Origin: Eisenbergiella porci | GTDB taxonomy: Bacteria > Bacillota > Clostridia > Lachnospirales > Lachnospiraceae | DNA: 36,277 nt | NCBI RefSeq assembly: GCF_009696275.1 | Contig: NZ_VUMI01000056.1 | Coordinates: forward strand, 1-36,277 | Reading direction: 5' to 3' | Part shown: positions 22,622-30,189 of the stretch, in pieces | Layout of the letters: every line of letters begins with the position of its first letter | Position numbering within the stretch: position 1 is the first letter of the stretch | Program-made: the position numbers and the translations under genes | The notes under the pieces: model-generated | Seen by the model: the letters and a program-made list of their open reading frames with translations, nothing else | Told to the model about the DNA's origin: nothing | The model's database searches: none

Positions 22622-23290
22622 TCATTTCAGGACGGATGAGGAAATGGATTTCATTCGCGCATATTGTGAGGCATTCAGGGCAACCTTGCCCAGGACCTGA
22701 ATGCGGTCAGGAGAAAACCTTGAAATATGCAGCGTCGGATATTCGGAATTAAATGGATAAAGTTCTACTTTATCGACAAAAAGTTTTATTTTCCTGCATA
22801 CCGTCTCCTCCTGCACCAAAAAAATACCGATTTCCTCAGAAACCAGCTCTGTAAAGGGGATGATATCAATTAATTCGTGCATACGGATAACCGGTTCCAT
22901 ACTGTCGTCATCAGCATACAGCGTATAGGCTACTGATCTGTTGTATACGATATGGAAATCAGGTATGGCAGCTTCTTCATGGGAAATCGGGAAATTTTTA
23001 ACGGAACTGACGACAGGAATGTTACATGGCACTTTTTCCCCGTTTTGAGACGTTTTTTTGTAACGGTAAATTTCCGGATTTTCTGTACGACCCAAAAGAT
23101 AATCAACAGAACAGGATAGGAAATCGGCTATTTTTGCAAGTGTGTCTGCTTTAACCATGGAACCTCGGGAAAGCATGGAGGATATAGTGTTTTTGTTCAG
23201 CCCTGATTCCATAAGCATGTCTTTCTGCTGCAGATTTTTTTCTTTCAAAAGTTTATTAATTCGTTCGGCTACATTGGCGGGTTCGTACAT
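22622..23290 (-). CDS. XRE repressor with S24/LexA-like C-terminal domain
   Basis: 222-residue regulator built like phage CI or LexA-type repressors. The N-terminal XRE helix-turn-helix (about 9-65) includes LQQKDMLMESGLNKNTIS, followed by CSVDYLLGRTE. The C-terminal S24 domain carries a Ser-Lys pair, S130 in DDDSMEP and a lysine at about 167 in VCRKIKL. Such proteins may self-cleave on DNA damage or only use the fold to dimerise; I see no clear Ala-Gly cleavage site. AAAGGAGC precedes the ATG. It is divergent from the small XRE gene at 23430, with a 26-bp palindrome between them. No phage structural genes are near. Confidence 0.88.
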   Translation of the reverse strand: MYEPANVAERINKLLKEKNLQQKDMLMESGLNKNTISSMLSRGSMVKADTLAKIADFLSCSVDYLLGRTENPEIYRYKKTSQNGEKVPCNIPVVSSVKNFPISHEEAAIPDFHIVYNRSVAYTLYADDDSMEPVIRMHELIDIIPFTELVSEEIGIFLVQEETVCRKIKLFVDKVELYPFNSEYPTLHISRFSPDRIQVLGKVALNASQYARMKSISSSVLK

Positions 23291-23375
23291 GAGATGCTCC
23301 TTTAATAGTTTTATTTATCCAACAAATGTAATACCAAATATTTACAATCCACCAATTGTGGGATATACTATTATC

Positions 23376-23401
23376 GTGGTAATATATAAATATATTACCA
23401 C
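23376..23401. promoter_or_regulatory. 26-bp perfect palindrome, divergent operator
   Basis: GTGGTAATATAT, central AA, then ATATATTACCAC, in the 139-bp region between the two divergent regulator genes. A TAATAT box within it could be the -10 of the plus-strand gene, with TTGTGG (23357-23362) as a loose -35. The symmetry and position suit a dimeric repressor, probably one of the two adjacent XRE proteins. A further GTAATACC occurs at 23328-23335. Confidence 0.75.
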
Positions 23402-23429
23402 AGTAATAAAGGGGAAAGAAGGGAAAATT

Positions 23430-23618
23430 ATGTCTGTAGGTGAAAATATCAAGAAAAGGCGGGAGGCAAAGGGACTCAGCCAGGCCGAGCTTGCCGGAGC
23501 AATTGGGGTAGGGCAGTCTTATTTATCCCAGATTGAGAGAGGAACGAAGACAGCGTCAATACAGCTTGGAAAACAGATTGCGGAAATTCTGGAATGTACG
23601 CTGGATGAGCTGGCTTAA
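23430..23618 (+). CDS. Small XRE-family DNA-binding protein
   Basis: 62-residue single-domain helix-turn-helix protein. The fold is clear from IKKRREAKGLSQAELAGAIG, then QSYLSQIERGTKTAS and a final CTLDELA. I chose the ATG at 23430 after GGGGAAAGAAGGG; upstream in-frame codons lie in the operator region and cannot be coding. It is divergent from the S24-type repressor and shares the palindromic operator, an arrangement like a CI/Cro-type switch. Downstream, after 131 bp, begins a set of redox genes it might regulate. Confidence 0.88.
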   Translation: MSVGENIKKRREAKGLSQAELAGAIGVGQSYLSQIERGTKTASIQLGKQIAEILECTLDELA

Positions 23619-24951: not shown

Positions 24952-25599
24952 CTACTCTTCCTGATAATATTTCTTTTCAAATTCCTCCCAGGACCTGCTG
25001 AATTCATGGTTCATGAAGGCTTCCTTCAGCCCGGTGATCTGTTTTAACCGGATGACCTCATCCAGATTCATGCCCAGCTCCCGGCAGATTCTTTCGTCGG
25101 GCCAGCCGGAGCGGGTGAGAACCATGACAATCGCGCTCATGGGGCGGATGCCGTGGGTCCCGCGGGCGCGGTTATGGCGGATGGTGGCGGCGATACGCTG
25201 GTCGAGGGGCTTGTTCAGGGTGGTGACGGGAAGGTAGCCGTGGACGCGCTGCTGGATGTCGGGATATTCCCGGGCCACCCGGTTGCGGTGGAAGCCGTCC
25301 ACGATTTCACGGCTTCCGTTTCTCATGTCATAGGTTACGATGGGCATGGTGTAGCCGTCCTCCCGGATACTGGTGTGCAGAAGGGTCATTTCGGGAGAAG
25401 CCACGTGGTTGGGGTTGTATTCGTTGGCCTGCACATTTTCCTGCCTGACCCAGAGCACGCAGTCGGTAGGCTCTTCCTGAAAAGGGCTGACCTGGGAGAT
25501 TCCCTTCCTGATTTTGTTGATCGCTTCCACCTTTTCGGAAAAATCATCAATGGAGGTGATGTATTCCTGCAGTTCGTTTATGAGTTGATTCAAATCCAT
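24952..25599 (-). CDS. ParB-like nuclease-fold protein (IbrB/YbdM type)
   Basis: 215-residue protein with a ParB N-terminal fold (about 45-130). The block VQANEYNPNHVA is followed by TSIREDGYTMPIVTY and the conserved IVDGFHRNRVA. The C-terminal region contains a helix-turn-helix-like stretch (SGWPDERICRELGMNLDEV). In E. coli, IbrB/YbdM is encoded next to IbrA/YbdN, a DUF3440 protein, and the same pairing is seen here. The family may bind DNA or hydrolyse NTP or DNA; the activity is not settled. GAGGAAACACAA precedes the ATG. It is the last gene of the cassette, 49 bp after the GNAT gene. Confidence 0.88.
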   Translation of the reverse strand: MDLNQLINELQEYITSIDDFSEKVEAINKIRKGISQVSPFQEEPTDCVLWVRQENVQANEYNPNHVASPEMTLLHTSIREDGYTMPIVTYDMRNGSREIVDGFHRNRVAREYPDIQQRVHGYLPVTTLNKPLDQRIAATIRHNRARGTHGIRPMSAIVMVLTRSGWPDERICRELGMNLDEVIRLKQITGLKEAFMNHEFSRSWEEFEKKYYQEE

Positions 25600-25648
25600 T
25601 TGTGTTTCCTCTTTTGTTTCCTCTGTTGTATGTATGGGTAATCCGGGA

Positions 25649-26041
25649 TCAGTTTTCCATGGTAATATAGCTGCCCCGGCGGGAAAGGCGGTGAAAACCT
25701 CTTTCGTCCAGCATGGCGATGAGCCTGGGGTTGGAGGTGACCATGCGCACGGTGGGGAAGGAGCGGAGCATGTCCTCCAGCATGAAGGGGCAGACGCCAT
25801 ACTGACGGAAGGCAGGAAGCACATATACGCCGGATATGGCCGTGTGCCGTTCCCTTTCCTCATGCGCATAAAAGCCTGCAAGCTTACCGTTTGCGAAAAA
25901 CAGGCACCATTCCTTTTCCTCGGTATTTACCAGATAGGGCATCTCGTCCCGGTATTTTTTTTCGGCAAAGAACTCGCCCATAATGGAATAAAAGGCGGCT
26001 TTGTCATAGTCTTCTTTAAACTCCCTCTTTTGCAAATTCAT
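25649..26041 (-). CDS. GNAT-like acetyltransferase
   Basis: 130-residue protein resembling the GNAT N-acetyltransferase fold: EWCLFFANGKLAGFYA and ISGVYVLPAFRQYGVC, the latter being where the acetyl-CoA loop normally lies, and a final NPRLIAMLDERGFHRL. The start at 26041 follows GGGAGGATTG and lies inside the end of the DUF3440 gene, so the two are coupled. The acetyl-CoA loop is weakly conserved, so activity is uncertain. It sits between the IbrA-like and IbrB-like genes, which is an unusual place for an enzyme of this kind. Confidence 0.75.
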   Translation of the reverse strand: MNLQKREFKEDYDKAAFYSIMGEFFAEKKYRDEMPYLVNTEEKEWCLFFANGKLAGFYAHEERERHTAISGVYVLPAFRQYGVCPFMLEDMLRSFPTVRMVTSNPRLIAMLDERGFHRLSRRGSYITMEN

Positions 26042-27344
26042 CTTCAATCCTCCCGGCAGCCTCCCTGAGCTGCTTATTTGTGGACTGGATATCCCGCCGG
26101 ATGATGCCGGCATATTTCTTTTTCAGCTCAAACAGGCGTTTTACATCACCCTTGGTTTCACTGAAGCTGAGCCCTGACATCCAGAAGTCATTTTTTTCTA
26201 TGGCGCGGGCAACGCGTTTCCAGTAAGGAGCCTGGCGGAAGCCCTGGATATTCCATTTATCGTCGGGCATGGCATCTGCGGTGATGCCGGCTTCCTTTTC
26301 CCACCAGGCCAGGAATTTTTTGATTTTACGGTAGTAGTGATCTCTTACCTCAGGAGCGTAGAGGCCCAGGCTTTCCAGGAGGAATACGGCGTACTGCTCC
26401 CAGGTCATGCCGTCGGGCTTTTCCGATTTAATATTCCCAAGAAGGCTGGTGCGGCAGTAGATGTTGCCAAAATTCACGCCCTCTACCCGGTAGAGCACTT
26501 TTTCCCAGGTATCCGGCTCCAGGGAGCGGAACTGATCCAGTCCCTTGCGCTGGTCGTCGCCGTAAGGTTGGCAGAGCCGCTGCTCGCTGATGGGCACGCC
26601 ATTTTTGTACATCAGTTCATAGATGTAGTTGAATTTCAGGTCAAACCGGGCTACGGCGGTCCAGTCATCGGCGGCGGACCAGTCGTAGAGCGGGTAAAAA
26701 TTATAGCAGTCAATCGGCTTGTCATGGATTTTGACCCGCGTGGTCCAGGGGTAATCCTGGAAACGTTCCTTGGAGGAGCTGATAATAGTACGGAACCGGT
26801 TCAGGCTTTCGTCGGAGCGGATGCCGATGCCGGCGGCTGCAGTGCCTTTGCGGGCGGTGCAGAACCATTGGGCGAAAAAGAGGATGAACTCTTCAAATTC
26901 CATGCCTCTTCGGAACCAGGTCCATTCTTCTGGGTAGCTGTCCTCCGTTACCATAATCACGTCCTCCCTGTCGGGGAGGGAGCGCACCCATTTTTCCTTC
27001 TGTTTCTTATCCCAGCAGATCCATTTGGGGCGGATGGCGGAGGCGGCGTTTCGCAGGGAAAGCGGCATGGCCACCCAGTACCAGGCGTCCACCACATCCG
27101 CCGTACAGCGAATGAGCTCGTCCACATGGTCGATGGTTGCCTGGTACTGGGCCTCCAGATCGATGTAAAGGATTGAGAATTTTTTCCCGGTCCGGCGGGC
27201 GGCGCCGGCGGCAAGCTGCAGCATGATGGAGCTGTCTTTTCCTCCGGAAACGCTGAAATAAATGTGATCGAAATTTTTATAAATGATATCGTACCGCTCC
27301 ATAGCGGCTTCATATACGTTTTTGTCCCGGTATATTTTAGGCAT
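26016..27344 (-). CDS. DUF3440 PAPS-reductase-like protein (IbrA/YbdN type)
   Basis: 442-residue protein of the phosphoadenosine phosphosulfate reductase-like superfamily with a DUF3440 C-terminal region. The PP-loop SGGKDSS lies at residues 33-39, which in this superfamily binds adenylated or ATP substrates. Further blocks are YIDLEAQY, WYWVAMPLSLR, IGIRSDESLNRF, YPLYDWSAADDW and QRLCQPYGDDQRKGL. IbrA in E. coli acts with IbrB as a regulator; other relatives (DndC) work in DNA phosphorothioation. I chose the ATG at 27344 because GGAGGAA precedes it; an upstream ATG in frame lies deeper in the SNF2 gene. It overlaps the SNF2 end by 8 bases and the GNAT start by 26. Confidence 0.92.
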   Translation of the reverse strand: MPKIYRDKNVYEAAMERYDIIYKNFDHIYFSVSGGKDSSIMLQLAAGAARRTGKKFSILYIDLEAQYQATIDHVDELIRCTADVVDAWYWVAMPLSLRNAASAIRPKWICWDKKQKEKWVRSLPDREDVIMVTEDSYPEEWTWFRRGMEFEEFILFFAQWFCTARKGTAAAGIGIRSDESLNRFRTIISSSKERFQDYPWTTRVKIHDKPIDCYNFYPLYDWSAADDWTAVARFDLKFNYIYELMYKNGVPISEQRLCQPYGDDQRKGLDQFRSLEPDTWEKVLYRVEGVNFGNIYCRTSLLGNIKSEKPDGMTWEQYAVFLLESLGLYAPEVRDHYYRKIKKFLAWWEKEAGITADAMPDDKWNIQGFRQAPYWKRVARAIEKNDFWMSGLSFSETKGDVKRLFELKKKYAGIIRRDIQSTNKQLREAAGRIEDEFAKEGV

Positions 27345-28779
27345 GGCGGGGTTCCTCCAAATCATCGCAGTCCATTAGGCTCCGGCTTGGCTGCCGGTAA
27401 AATACCCATTCCGCGATTCCATTTTTGTTTTCCATGTTTTTAATGTCGTTTCTGAAGGCTTCCAGAAGCTTTTCCTTCCTGTACAGGCAGCTGAGGATTC
27501 TTTCGTCCAGGGTGTTATAGGCACAGATATCCCGGATGCGGATGTCCTGATCCTGGCCGATCCGGTGGATACGATCCTCGCTTTGCAGGCGGGTGGCCAG
27601 ATCCCAGCCGTTGGAATAGTAGATGATATTATGGCAGAACTGCAGGTTAAGGCTGTAGCCCGCGCAGTCCCGGTTGGCAATGAGGAAGGTGGCGGATTCC
27701 CTGAATTCCTCCAGGTTACGGAGCCTTTTTTTCATAGGAAGGGAACCGTCAAAGCGCGCCACGTTTTCCGGGCCGTATTTTCTGGAAAGGATTTCACACA
27801 GCACATCGATTTCATAGGTATAGTTGCAGAAAATGATGTATTTGTTCCGGTTGTCAAGTACAGTAAGCAGGCGCTGCAGCCGGGGATTATCCGTAGGCTC
27901 CGCAAAAAAGGGCGAGGTTACGATATGTTCGTAGCCGGAAACTGCGCTTTTGCGGAAGTTCACACGGAAGCCGCTGGTTACGGCCTGCAGACCTGAAAAC
28001 AGCCGGTATATGGTCTCAGGATGCATTTCGTTGAGGTGAAACAGCAGGGTGTCGGCCACGCTGTTGTAATGGGCGTTCTGTTCCGGGGTGAGCGGAAAGT
28101 AGTTAATGGTATATCTTTTATCAGGAAGCACGAGGCAGTCCTTTTTGGTAACCTGCACGGTGTAGGGGGATATTTTTCTGGCAAGATAATCCGTATTCAG
28201 ACAACGGATGATTTTCTGCGGAATTTCCGGATCAAATTCAATGTGGTTGGCGGCGAAGGACCAGTAGGTTTTATAGCCCAGGATCCTCCAGTCAAGCACA
28301 TGGAACTGCGCATACAGGTCGGCCTGGTTTTTGGAAATGGGCATACCGTTGAGAATCAGCTTGTATTCGCACCGTGAGGACAGCCGGTCTATGTTCTGTG
28401 TCCTGTAGGCGTAGGGATTTTTTATAAGAAGGCTTTCATCCACCACGAGGTAGCAGGCTTCCCGTTCGGTGAGCAGCTGGAGATAGCTGTTGGCATGAAG
28501 GCTTCGGGAAAGTGTCTCAATGCCGCATATGGTAATTTTCTCAAGCATTTCCCGGGGGGACTGCTTGATGAGCTCATCCTTCAGGTTCTGCTTGGTGGAA
28601 CAGGGGCAGAGCCACAGGATGTGGGTGACCTTTCCGGCCTCCAGCCGGAGCCGGCAAAGCTCCAGCGCAGTGATGGTTTTGCCTGTGCCCTGTTCCATGA
28701 ACAGGGCGCCCACCTTGACCTTTTTCAATTTTTCTACCGCATTCTCCTGGTAGTCCAGGAGCTTGTTTGTCAAATGCAT
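27337..28779 (-). CDS. SNF2-family DEAD-like ATPase/helicase
   Basis: 480-residue SF2 ATPase of the SNF2 type, expected to move along or remodel double-stranded DNA. Motif I is MEQGTGKT (28-35), motif II is DES at 114-116 rather than DEAH, motif III is LILNGMPISKNQADLY, and the C-terminal half has FCNYTYEIDVL, FLIANRDCAGYSLNLQ (motif V) and QSEDRIHRIGQ (motif VI, about 399-409). It is a compact form with no extra nuclease domain. It begins 2 bases after the stop of the 397-residue protein and overlaps the DUF3440 gene. Such small SNF2 genes occur in phages and mobile elements, and in defence loci. Confidence 0.92.
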   Translation of the reverse strand: MHLTNKLLDYQENAVEKLKKVKVGALFMEQGTGKTITALELCRLRLEAGKVTHILWLCPCSTKQNLKDELIKQSPREMLEKITICGIETLSRSLHANSYLQLLTEREACYLVVDESLLIKNPYAYRTQNIDRLSSRCEYKLILNGMPISKNQADLYAQFHVLDWRILGYKTYWSFAANHIEFDPEIPQKIIRCLNTDYLARKISPYTVQVTKKDCLVLPDKRYTINYFPLTPEQNAHYNSVADTLLFHLNEMHPETIYRLFSGLQAVTSGFRVNFRKSAVSGYEHIVTSPFFAEPTDNPRLQRLLTVLDNRNKYIIFCNYTYEIDVLCEILSRKYGPENVARFDGSLPMKKRLRNLEEFRESATFLIANRDCAGYSLNLQFCHNIIYYSNGWDLATRLQSEDRIHRIGQDQDIRIRDICAYNTLDERILSCLYRKEKLLEAFRNDIKNMENKNGIAEWVFYRQPSRSLMDCDDLEEPRHA

Positions 28780-28781
28780 AA

Positions 28782-29975
28782 TCAGTCACTATCCGCCAGA
28801 TCATCCAGAATGGCTCCGGAGGATTCCAGTATTTTGTGCAGGTTGTTGATATCTTCCGTCGGTTTTGGAGGCGCCGGGGATACGCGGGGCGCGCTGTCCA
28901 GAGTCAATCTGTAGGACTCGAGAAGCTCCCTGGCCTCCGGATCAAAGCGGAATCCGTACATTTCCGCAAAATCCTCCAGTTCCTCATAATGCGACGGCTC
29001 CAGGAAGATGCCGCCGGAGTGGAAGTTGGAGGTGGGTATTTTTTTCAGGTTCACAGAGATTTCCCTGGGCATATTGGGCGATATGGCAATGTAAAAGAAG
29101 CTGCCTTTTTTGCTTTTGCTGATCCAGCGTTTATGTTCAGGAAGAAAATTGCCGGTAATGGCCTGTTCACGGGCTTCGCGGTCCGCAATGGATACGGTGA
29201 AGCCGTTTTTGAGCAGAAGATTGCCAAGTTCGGCGGCACGGTCGCAAAAACGGCCGCGGCAGGCATTCAGCCTGCGGTACCAGCAGCTTCCGTTCCATTC
29301 ATAATCCATATCCCGGATAATTTCCCGGAATCGGTCGTTTTTCTCATAAATGGCCAGGATCTCACTATCATCCCCCCTGATTTCCACGATGCCGGCGTAC
29401 TGCGGAGCATGGGGGGCAATAATGGAATCCTTGGAAATGAAGCCGGGATCGGCGCTGCTTTCCTCCGGGCGGCACCATTTCTTCCATTCCAGATATTCGG
29501 GAAGAAGCTGCTCCAGGTTGCACAGGTCCTTGTTGAAACGGTTGTTAATCCAGTAGACTGCCTTTGTTTTTTCATGAATGAGATATTGGACGATTTCCTG
29601 AAATATCACAGGAAGTTCCCCGGCATTTAATTCCATGGGAGTCAGCGCTTCGTAGGTCATGCGCCTGACGACCAGATCGACATTCCGCGGGTTATCGATA
29701 AAAGCCTGCAGACGGGTCAGCGCTTCCACGCGGAGAGTTTCCGCCCAGGTCACCTGCTTTCGGCTGCCCTCAAGCGGCGGCAGCTCCATGCGGGCTGCGG
29801 CCTTCCTGGCAGCGGCGTTCTGCTTGTTCCGGCTTTGCAGCAGCGCTTCTCTGCAGCATGCCGGGCAGAGGCCGGAAAACTTGTACTCTCTCATTTTTTC
29901 CCTGTTCTTCAGAGGCCCGATAATGTTTATGTAGCCTTCATGCCCACAATAAAAAGTACCGGAATACCATGCCAT
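28782..29975 (-). CDS. Unknown protein, Zn-finger start and HARP-like repeats
   Basis: 397-residue protein that I cannot assign to a named family. The N-terminus has cysteines and histidine suited to zinc (CGHEG at 10-14; CPACC at about 37). The middle (about 205-265) reads NDRFREIIRDMDYEWNGSCWYRRL then LGNLLLKNGFTVSI, written here in parts. This recalls the HARP-type module (short helix, W-x-W strands) found beside SNF2 ATPases such as SMARCAL1. A Pro-rich tail ends at DDLADSD. It is the first gene of the cassette and directly precedes the SNF2 gene, so a DNA-binding partner role is a fair guess. GGGGGAA precedes the ATG. Confidence 0.7.
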   Translation of the reverse strand: MAWYSGTFYCGHEGYINIIGPLKNREKMREYKFSGLCPACCREALLQSRNKQNAAARKAAARMELPPLEGSRKQVTWAETLRVEALTRLQAFIDNPRNVDLVVRRMTYEALTPMELNAGELPVIFQEIVQYLIHEKTKAVYWINNRFNKDLCNLEQLLPEYLEWKKWCRPEESSADPGFISKDSIIAPHAPQYAGIVEIRGDDSEILAIYEKNDRFREIIRDMDYEWNGSCWYRRLNACRGRFCDRAAELGNLLLKNGFTVSIADREAREQAITGNFLPEHKRWISKSKKGSFFYIAISPNMPREISVNLKKIPTSNFHSGGIFLEPSHYEELEDFAEMYGFRFDPEARELLESYRLTLDSAPRVSPAPPKPTEDINNLHKILESSGAILDDLADSD

Positions 29976-30140: not shown

Positions 30141-30189
30141 TACCAATTATTGGTAAATCTATTTTAATCCATCCGAAAAATATAGTCAA
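30141..30189 (-). promoter_or_regulatory. Cassette promoter with palindromic operator
   Basis: Read on minus: TTGACT (30189-30184), 17-bp spacer, TAAAAT (30166-30161). Immediately downstream, covering the expected start site, is the palindrome TACCAATTATTGGTA (30141-30155). This suggests the five-gene cassette is repressed. The leader of about 180 bases to 29975 contains TTTTGC-GAA-GCAAAA (30017-30031) and further TTACCA half-sites (30125-30130, 29999-30003 region). Confidence 0.65.

What the first reader, a model, noticed from the sequence alone, without database searches (positions are those of the whole stretch)
24952..29975. Five-gene SNF2 / PAPS-reductase-like / GNAT / ParB cassette
Five genes on minus, overlapping or nearly touching, form one unit: a possible HARP-like zinc protein, a compact SNF2 ATPase, a DUF3440 PP-loop protein, a GNAT-like protein and a ParB-fold protein. 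The DUF3440/ParB pair is known as IbrA/IbrB (YbdN/YbdM) in E. coli. DndC-type relatives and ParB-fold DndB act in DNA phosphorothioation. Joining the pair to a SNF2 translocase and a GNAT enzyme suggests a DNA-modifying, defence or conflict system, or a phage-type regulatory module. The function is not established.
Basis: partly seen in the sequence, partly recalled or inferred. Interest (0 to 1): 0.8.

Follow-up and report, generated by a model that had tools for sequence, protein, structure and literature searches.

The report
Mobile HARP-SNF2-IbrAB gene unit
Five adjacent bacterial genes form a conserved unit that phages carry and some gut bacteria keep: a DNA motor with its partner, plus an ATP-using enzyme pair of unknown job, probably working together on DNA.

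Summary
In detail: five intact minus-strand genes at 24952-29975, overlapping or closely spaced. All five show purifying selection in related genomes.

They are co-conserved. Of 101 non-redundant DUF3440 loci with enough flank, 98 have a ParB-fold gene nearby and 44 a SNF2 gene; in the window's own clade (60% identity or more), 18 of 19 have SNF2 plus the first gene. Starting from SNF2, 28 of 28 non-redundant close relatives have the first gene and 27 of 28 have DUF3440 and ParB.

Two pairs are visible: HARP-like/SNF2 co-vary most (r=0.87); DUF3440/ParB is IbrA/IbrB. GNAT is optional and fused to DUF3440 in four loci.

Viral loci place the unit near terminase or lysis genes; in this genus it is chromosomal, without a defence-island signal. 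In 8 of the 28 a compact methyltransferase-like gene joins it, once without IbrAB.

It is not Dnd by the tests made. A conserved C-terminal tail ([ILV]xDLxD) on the HARP-like protein looks like a docking peptide.

Best reading: a DNA-acting, probably DNA-modifying module (about 0.4). No biochemistry was tested.

The parts
28782..29975 (-). HARP-like / zinc-ribbon protein, 397 aa (P0005), first gene of the unit
   Evidence: ORF; PHROG 16123 7.5e-16, no Pfam match; AlphaFold2 pLDDT 84.8; fold matches: phage 'HepA-related protein' E 4.3e-5; PDB hits not significant (best a TFIIH chain, E 0.06)
28785..28814 (-). C-terminal tail AILDDLADSD of the HARP-like protein, proposed docking peptide
   Evidence: L393 invariant and D392 nearly so in 26 sequences; tail conserved in relatives with synonymous codon variation; low model confidence there
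27337..28779 (-). compact SNF2-type ATPase, 480 aa (P0004)
   Evidence: Helicase_C 8.7e-15, SNF2-rel_dom 4.4e-13; PHROG 62 DNA helicase 1.6e-86; solved Snf2/Rad54 relative 1z63 3e-24; Walker A pattern in 64 of 69 relatives
26016..27365 (-). IbrA-type PP-loop ATP-pyrophosphatase with DUF3440, 449 aa (P0003)
   Evidence: AlphaFold2 81.8; best fold match an ATP sulfurylase subunit, 1zun_A, E 9.7e-6; S40, G42, K43, D44, S45 of the SGGKDS loop invariant in 41 sequences
25649..26041 (-). GNAT-like protein, 130 aa (P0002 begins one codon earlier); start overlaps the DUF3440 gene
   Evidence: Acetyltransf_1 7.6e-6; partial acetyl-CoA loop RQYGVC in the window protein; fused to DUF3440 in four distinct loci
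24952..25599 (-). IbrB-type ParB/Srx-fold protein, 215 aa (P0001 lacks its first Met)
   Evidence: PHROG 2159 1.2e-68; Noc 9.5e-5, SbnI 1.1e-4, ParB 1.3e-4 in PDB; D100, G101, H103, R104 and TIRHNRARGxH invariant in 25 sequences
30161..30189 (-). promoter-like site TTGACT-17-TAAAAT upstream of the first gene
   Evidence: 10 of 12 matches; 7 sites found in the region against 5.3 in shuffles, so weak; sequence

Best explanation
The five genes are one mobile unit made of two pairs. The HARP-like protein and the SNF2 ATPase form a DNA-translocating engine; the HARP-like protein docks on it through a disordered C-terminal peptide. The IbrA-type PP-loop enzyme and the IbrB-type ParB/Srx-fold NTP-binding protein form the chemical part: IbrA activates a substrate with ATP (AMP-type chemistry, as in CysD, FAD synthase and tRNA PP-loop enzymes) and IbrB supplies a second nucleotide-driven or phosphotransfer step. 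GNAT is an optional domain that works on or with IbrA. Together they probably modify DNA, or something on DNA, for the benefit of a phage or its host. Shown: co-occurrence, pairing, fusions, conservation, purifying selection, and sharing of the engine with a methyltransferase-like gene. Inferred: that the target is DNA, the chemistry, and the docking partner.
For: Reverse test from SNF2: 28 of 28 non-redundant relatives at 47% identity or more have the HARP-like gene, 27 of 28 DUF3440 and ParB. Co-variation HARP-SNF2 r=0.87, HARP-DUF3440 0.51, DUF3440-ParB 0.72, 29 loci. Fusions: DUF3440-GNAT in four distinct loci, ParB-DUF3440 in one, L375. In 8 of the 28 a compact 207-235-aa protein also occurs; all 10 ORFs of this kind (duplicates included) have DPPW or DPPY followed by D[LF]CMGxG, a methyltransferase-like motif pair (recalled), with a sub-cut-off N6_N4_Mtase match in two of three scanned. 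In L366 it follows HARP-SNF2 with no IbrAB, so the engine is shared with a probable DNA-modifying enzyme. Phage neighbours: terminase, portal, endolysin, tail and YqaJ exonuclease genes. A Fusobacterium phage has DUF3440-ParB-SNF2 close to a second ParB gene beside a queuine tRNA-ribosyltransferase gene, the type of pair that inserts deazaguanine in DNA in Dpd systems (PMC12839542, passages read).
Against: No substrate, sulfur donor or modified base is shown. Many DUF3440-ParB loci lack SNF2 and the HARP-like gene: 34 of 101 have ParB without SNF2, HARP-like or separate GNAT, and 18 of 101 GNAT and ParB, so IbrAB must work without the engine. HARP-like sequences also occur without SNF2: L200 (no SNF2, DUF3440 or ParB found in 17 kb) and the N-terminal piece in L342. 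E. coli IbrAB is reported as an activator of prophage genes (Sandt 2002, title seen in reference lists; not read). The methyltransferase match is below Pfam's cut-off, and the L366 protein has no Pfam match.
Confidence: 0.4

Rival explanations
1. A regulatory module: IbrAB co-activates (anti-silences) genes, and HARP-SNF2 remodels nucleoprotein or recycles polymerase on the DNA, RapA-like.
For: IbrAB is named after activation of prophage eib genes in E. coli ECOR-9 (Sandt 2002, title in reference lists; restated in PMC6008420, passage read). ybdNM is repressed by the regulator CitR (PMC9068703, passages read). In three phages the genes lie next to Cro-like or antirepressor genes.
Against: An ATP-pyrophosphatase with a conserved catalytic loop is not needed for plain activation; the SNF2 engine also travels with a methyltransferase-like gene.
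Confidence: 0.25
2. A phage replication or recombination aid: HARP-SNF2 acts as a fork-remodelling (annealing-helicase-like) motor and IbrAB is a passenger of the same operon.
For: HARP-type fold hint (PDB hint not significant); a YqaJ exonuclease gene inside the unit in L012 and thymidylate synthase near it in L009.
Against: The unit is kept on chromosomes away from recognised phage structural genes and under purifying selection; IbrAB adjacency is too constant for a passenger (27 of 28).
Confidence: 0.15
3. An anti-phage or superinfection-exclusion system that lysogens and some hosts carry.
For: Patchy distribution (DUF3440 in 33 of 200 family genomes), phage carriage, and SNF2 relatives in DISARM, Zorya, Dpd and BREX.
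Against: No nuclease or other toxic domain recognised in the five proteins; no defence-island signal in 39 flanking proteins. IbrAB (the pair, not the whole unit) also occurs in phage FCL-2, reported without signs of lysogeny (PMC4541368, passages read).
Confidence: 0.12
4. A toxin-antitoxin pair: DUF3440 as toxin and ParB as antitoxin.
For: A Listeria survey lists lmo1310 (DUF3440) as toxin by guilt by association and lmo1309 (ParB) as antitoxin (PMC7020466, passages read).
Against: The label there rests on neighbourhood to an HMM hit; both proteins keep conserved nucleotide-handling motifs, and the fixed SNF2 and HARP-like partners are unexplained.
Confidence: 0.04
5. A sulfur-metabolism auxiliary gene (true PAPS reductase) with unrelated neighbours.
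For: Common database name 'PAPS reductase'; PAPS reductases are among the significant fold matches.
Against: Better fold matches are an ATP sulfurylase subunit and FAD synthase, and the only invariant cysteine is C265 in RLCQPYGDDQR.
Confidence: 0.04

Closest known systems
IbrA/IbrB (YbdN/YbdM) of E. coli and its prophages
   Same: DUF3440 PP-loop protein next to a ParB-fold protein; several phage hits are annotated IbrA/IbrB
   Different: The E. coli phage locus read here has no SNF2, HARP-like or GNAT match within 7.9 kb; the window adds these three
SNF2-PAPS-ParB cassette of Streptococcus, Lactobacillus and Fusobacterium phages
   Same: Same three genes, same order in Streptococcus and Lactobacillus
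   Different: No HARP-like match; other small proteins precede SNF2, some with a similar C-terminal tail; order differs in Fusobacterium
Dnd DNA phosphorothioation (DndA-E, DndB ParB-like)
   Same: PP-loop enzyme plus ParB-like protein
   Different: No DndC match, and no DndD match over cut-off, in the genome; cysteines not conserved
Dpd 7-deazaguanine system (DpdA TGT, DpdB ParB-like ATPase, DpdE SNF2)
   Same: ParB-fold NTPase plus base-modifying enzyme plus SNF2-type protein
   Different: A PP-loop enzyme instead of a transglycosylase; SNF2 only distantly like DpdE (2.3e-19)
Methylase-SNF2 dyads of phages (DarB type)
   Same: SNF2 motor coupled to a DNA-modifying enzyme (PMC5512222, passages read)
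   Different: Separate small proteins; the enzyme pair in the window is IbrAB, the methyltransferase-like gene occurs only in some relatives

Membership tests
IbrA/IbrB family | PAPS_reduct plus DUF3440 domains | tested here: met
   DUF3440 1.4e-29, PAPS_reduct 2.6e-10
IbrA/IbrB family | adjacent ParB-fold partner | tested here: met
   window layout; 98 of 101 loci
IbrA/IbrB family | co-activation of prophage genes | not testable with these tools
   needs expression experiments
Dnd phosphorothioation | DndC family score | tested here: not met
   PADLOC DndC only 3.2e-4 over 62 residues; no TIGR03183 match in the genome at E 0.001
Dnd phosphorothioation | conserved iron-sulfur cysteines of DndC (feature recalled) | tested here: not met
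   one invariant (C265) and one nearly invariant (C117) cysteine in 41 sequences
Dnd phosphorothioation | DndD/DndE/cysteine desulfurase beside it | tested here: inconclusive
   DndD: two weak matches in the genome, none over cut-off and none in the window's contig; no such family among ten flanking proteins in Pfam; DndA and DndE not searched genome-wide
PAPS reductase | conserved catalytic cysteine near the C-terminus (recalled) | tested here: not met
   no invariant cysteine C-terminal of C265 in 41 sequences
Partition ParB (ParABS) | ParA partner and GERR-type box (box recalled) | tested here: not met
   no ParA among the ten flanking proteins scanned with Pfam; DGxHR where the aligned ParB and Noc chains have GERR
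SerK/SbnI-like kinase | ParB/Srx fold with DGxHR motif | tested here: inconclusive
   SbnI 1.1e-4 over 52 residues with DGVHRY aligned to DGFHRY; activity not testable
GNAT acetyltransferase | Pfam GNAT match | tested here: met
   Acetyltransf_1 26.6 bits, cut-off 20.7
GNAT acetyltransferase | R/QxxGxG/A acetyl-CoA loop (recalled) | tested here: not met
   R/QxxG only in the window; by a pattern search over 54 proteins, the window's included, 1 full, 13 partial, 40 none; the full one and several partial ones look like chance matches
HARP domain (SMARCAL1 type) | Pfam HARP match or significant fold match | tested here: inconclusive
   HARP not among the 25 of 45 Pfam families shown for 26 members; phage 'HepA-related protein' E 4.3e-5; PDB none significant
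SNF2 ATPase | SNF2-rel and Helicase_C domains, Walker A | tested here: met
   GTGKT in P0004
Known anti-phage defence system | complete PADLOC gene set | tested here: not met
   matches of SNF2 to parts of larger defence helicases (25 of 37 families shown) and weak DndC/BrxP matches of DUF3440 only; flanks

The most novel reading that the evidence does not exclude
A so far undescribed kind of DNA modification: an AMP-activating PP-loop enzyme and a ParB/Srx-fold NTP-using partner write a mark on DNA, driven by a HARP-SNF2 engine that takes interchangeable enzymes (IbrAB or a compact methyltransferase) and interchangeable adaptor proteins through one C-terminal docking peptide.
Probability: 0.3. 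Interest if true: 0.88.

Novelty: new variant of a known kind. Interest (0 to 1): 0.6.

Why it matters
IbrAB-type pairs are widespread in phages and bacteria and are often labelled PAPS reductase or partition protein, but what they do is unknown. Showing that a large branch is tied to a dedicated DNA motor, that the same motor also travels with a methyltransferase-like gene, and that its partner carries a conserved docking tail turns a vague annotation into testable predictions. If the pair marks DNA, a common phage strategy has been overlooked.

Tried and rejected
Rejected: sulfur-metabolism gene; Dnd member; partition ParB; defence island; prophage around the window copy (the ten flanking proteins scanned are glycosidase, AraC, LacI, hemerythrin, NifX-like, transporter and two repressor-type proteins; no structural phage family among the 16 PHROG families matched at 1e-10 by 39 flanking proteins; but see the repressor genes noted in passing).

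Tail control: I asked whether the HARP-like tail is only the ribosome-binding site or start of SNF2. Distances from the upstream gene to the SNF2 open frame vary (-44 to +59 nt, one at +316) and the tail leucine, HARP-like and small proteins together, uses all six codons, so protein-level selection is likelier. In many loci the tail does overlap the SNF2 start. The comparison with small upstream proteins (29 proteins, 355 control ORFs, Mann-Whitney P 2e-5) treats relatives as independent; some upstream ORFs are probably mis-picked; 11 of 29 exceed the controls' 95th percentile and 18 do not. It is suggestive only.

Counting limits: a scan keeps at most 80 loci (searches hit that cap). In one search, loci L163-L170 (own, genus and family duplicates) were left out, 318 loci were reduced to 198 at 90% identity, and 97 without enough flank were dropped. 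The HARP-like count of 26 includes L013, a remnant in which the start of the HARP-like gene runs into the end of SNF2 in one open frame, and L012, whose SNF2 lies behind an inserted gene and was missed by the distance rule. L101 holds only an N-terminal HARP-like piece. GNAT fusions are not in the GNAT count. In one search one 'MTase' hit (L367) is a different, longer protein and I do not count it: 8, not 9, of 28. L375, counted there as lacking PAPS, holds a ParB-DUF3440 fusion. A reverse scan with the HARP-like protein of L017 gave only two loci, both with the full unit.

Led nowhere: literature on a SNF2-IbrAB unit. Searches showed no description of it; the library is open-licence only, and searches listed only the top of longer results. 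The 2013 Iyer paper and Sandt 2002 are not held.


Full report
OBSERVATION. The five genes are intact and lie on the minus strand at 24952-29975 as described. Transcription order is HARP-like, SNF2, DUF3440, GNAT, ParB-fold, with gaps or overlaps of +2, -29, -26 and +49 nt. Domain calls hold for four of the five. The first protein has no Pfam match and only a phage family of unknown function (phrog_16123).

CO-CONSERVATION, STARTING FROM DUF3440. I fetched 80 viral and 80 genome loci with the window protein, two further viral sets with a Streptococcus-phage and a Fusobacterium-phage homologue, and some phage records and genomes of the family. After dereplication at 90% identity and a flank requirement, 101 loci remain, the window included. 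ParB is near DUF3440 in 98 of 101, SNF2 in 44, the HARP-like gene in 26 (one of them, L013, a deletion remnant), a separate GNAT in 33. Among the 19 at 60% identity or more, 18 have SNF2 and the HARP-like gene. Flanks of the 32 HARP-bearing loci of the first set mostly differ; five neighbour clusters recur in three or more loci, the commonest (c0) in 8. So the unit moves as a block.

REVERSE TEST, STARTING FROM SNF2. 47 viral loci were fetched with the SNF2 protein of L007. At 47% identity or more there are 32 (7 of them contigs already seen), 28 non-redundant: HARP-like gene 28 of 28, DUF3440 27, ParB 27. Below 40% there are 15, 10 non-redundant, and only L375 has the partners (ParB is fused to DUF3440 there). 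Within the order, a HARP-like match was found in 3 of 392 genomes: the window's own, one with SNF2, DUF3440 and ParB beside it (L341), and one N-terminal piece with no partner (L342).

TWO PAIRS. Distance matrices of 29 loci correlate best for HARP-like and SNF2 (r=0.87), then DUF3440 and ParB (0.72); HARP-like with DUF3440 gives 0.51. None of these correlations was reached in 1000 permutations, which says little more than shared descent; the ranking is the point. L222 shows the pairs recombined: a divergent DUF3440 with a close HARP-SNF2 pair.

GNAT. It is optional. It is fused to the C-terminus of DUF3440 in L005, L006, L092 and L093, so it probably acts on or with that protein. By a pattern search, 40 of 54 lack even an RxxG loop; the window copy keeps a partial one. 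A DUF3440-GNAT-ParB triad without SNF2 is common in Clostridia contigs, often near an HU-like gene and housekeeping genes (the gene names are my reading of the sequences).

PHAGE SETTING. Neighbours in viral loci include terminase (L005, L007, L009), portal (L005), endolysin/amidase (L010), a tail protein (L003), a YqaJ exonuclease inside the unit (L012) and thymidylate synthase (L009). Annotated phages of Streptococcus, Lactobacillus and Fusobacterium carry SNF2 with DUF3440 and ParB. Mycobacterium phage Nebkiss has a gene annotated DNA helicase before the pair, but my SNF2 profile did not match it.

CHROMOSOMAL SETTING OF THE WINDOW. Flanks are glycosidase, regulator, hemerythrin and transporter genes. 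3 of 13 genomes of the genus hold the DUF3440 gene. Two (window, G012) share order and orientation with a mannosidase-type gene on one side and an alpha-galactosidase gene on the other; in the third (G005) the same mannosidase-type gene lies 17 kb away in the same relative orientation (DNA comparison; by coordinates L081 is the G005 locus and L082 the G012 locus). This fits one old acquisition kept since. All five genes are intact in the three; dN/dS between L081 and L082 is 0.04-0.08 for four genes and 0.18 for GNAT, whose frames there include the overlap with DUF3440 (comparisons with the window have high, near-saturated dS).

PARTS AND MECHANISM. DUF3440: five of the six SGGKDS positions are invariant; the best fold matches are an ATP sulfurylase subunit and FAD synthase, then TtuA-type and PAPS reductase structures (model). 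ParB: the nucleotide motif reads DGxHR and aligns with SbnI, unlike GERR of the aligned partition proteins. The ParB fold binds CTP, ATP or GTP, and a ParB-acetyltransferase fusion bound GTP (PMC12704722, abstract and passages read; IbrB and PAPS are not mentioned in its main text). SNF2: Walker A pattern in 64 of 69 and motif VI in 54 of 69.

HARP-LIKE PROTEIN. The model is good. Viral fold library: seven matches at E below 0.001, one named HepA-related protein; HARP stands for that name (recalled). PDB hits to a TFIIH chain (XPB-type subunit by recall) and MutS are not significant. A stretch at its profile positions 56-96 resembles AcrIF23 in sequence (1.9e-4).

DOCKING TAIL. The protein ends in [ILV]xDLxD. 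L393 is one of five invariant positions in 26 sequences. The tail was found in 27 of 29 HARP-like ORFs; both misses are in L375. In one phage record a HARP-like gene without SNF2 in 17 kb (L200) also lacks the tail, a single case. In phages lacking the HARP-like gene, unrelated small proteins precede SNF2 and some end similarly. The codon and distance control speaks against a purely ribosome-binding-site cause. I infer a docking peptide, probably for SNF2.

METHYLTRANSFERASE-LIKE PARTNER. In 8 of the 28 reverse-test loci the operon also carries a 207-235-aa protein; all 10 ORFs of this kind, duplicates included, have DPPW (DPPY in L374) followed by D[LF]CMGxG, with a sub-cut-off N6_N4_Mtase match in two of three scanned. 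In 7 of the 8 a 291-302-aa protein precedes DUF3440; the two scanned had no family match. In L366 the methyltransferase-like gene follows HARP-SNF2 with no IbrAB found on 13 kb. This is the best reason to read the engine as serving DNA modification. Methylase-SNF2 dyads are known in phages (PMC5512222, passages read).

NOT A KNOWN DEFENCE SYSTEM. PADLOC gives matches of SNF2 to parts of larger defence helicases and weak DndC and BrxP matches. 39 flanking proteins from five chromosomal loci matched five PADLOC families at 1e-10, generic helicase, regulator or galactosidase-type models.

VERDICT. The unit is real, selected and mobile, and the IbrAB core is a known pair of unknown function. The two-pair structure, the conserved tail and the sharing of the engine with a methyltransferase-like gene I did not find described (searches, in an open-licence library). 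The DNA-modification mechanism is inferred, at about 0.4.

Noticed in passing
window 22622-23618: Overlapping, divergent open frames for an S24-peptidase/Cro-C1 repressor (minus) and an HTH_3 protein (plus) lie about 1.3 kb past the end of the unit; a possible phage or element remnant, not covered by the DNA match with L082.
   Followed up: partly
L005:10403-10921, L362:10562-11089: A sixth gene (phrog_12389, unknown function) lies near the unit in many phage loci; 27 ORFs in the fetched loci match, duplicates included.
   Followed up: partly
L353:7373-8248 and relatives: A 291-302-aa protein sits between SNF2 and DUF3440 in nine loci of the methyltransferase variant, duplicates included; the two scanned had no Pfam or PHROG match.
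   Followed up: partly
L197:9754-11039: Fusobacterium phage phiFN37 has a second ParB gene next to a queuine tRNA-ribosyltransferase gene close to its DUF3440-ParB-SNF2 genes.
   Followed up: no
L104-L160: DUF3440-GNAT-ParB triad without SNF2 in many Clostridia contigs, often by an HU-like gene.
   Followed up: partly
L225-L280: Many of these phage contigs have DUF3440 with two ParB-like genes, plus a short DUF3440-like fragment gene.
   Followed up: no
L375:8931-10679: A ParB-DUF3440 fusion (582 aa) in a contig that also has HARP-like, SNF2 and GNAT matches.
   Followed up: no
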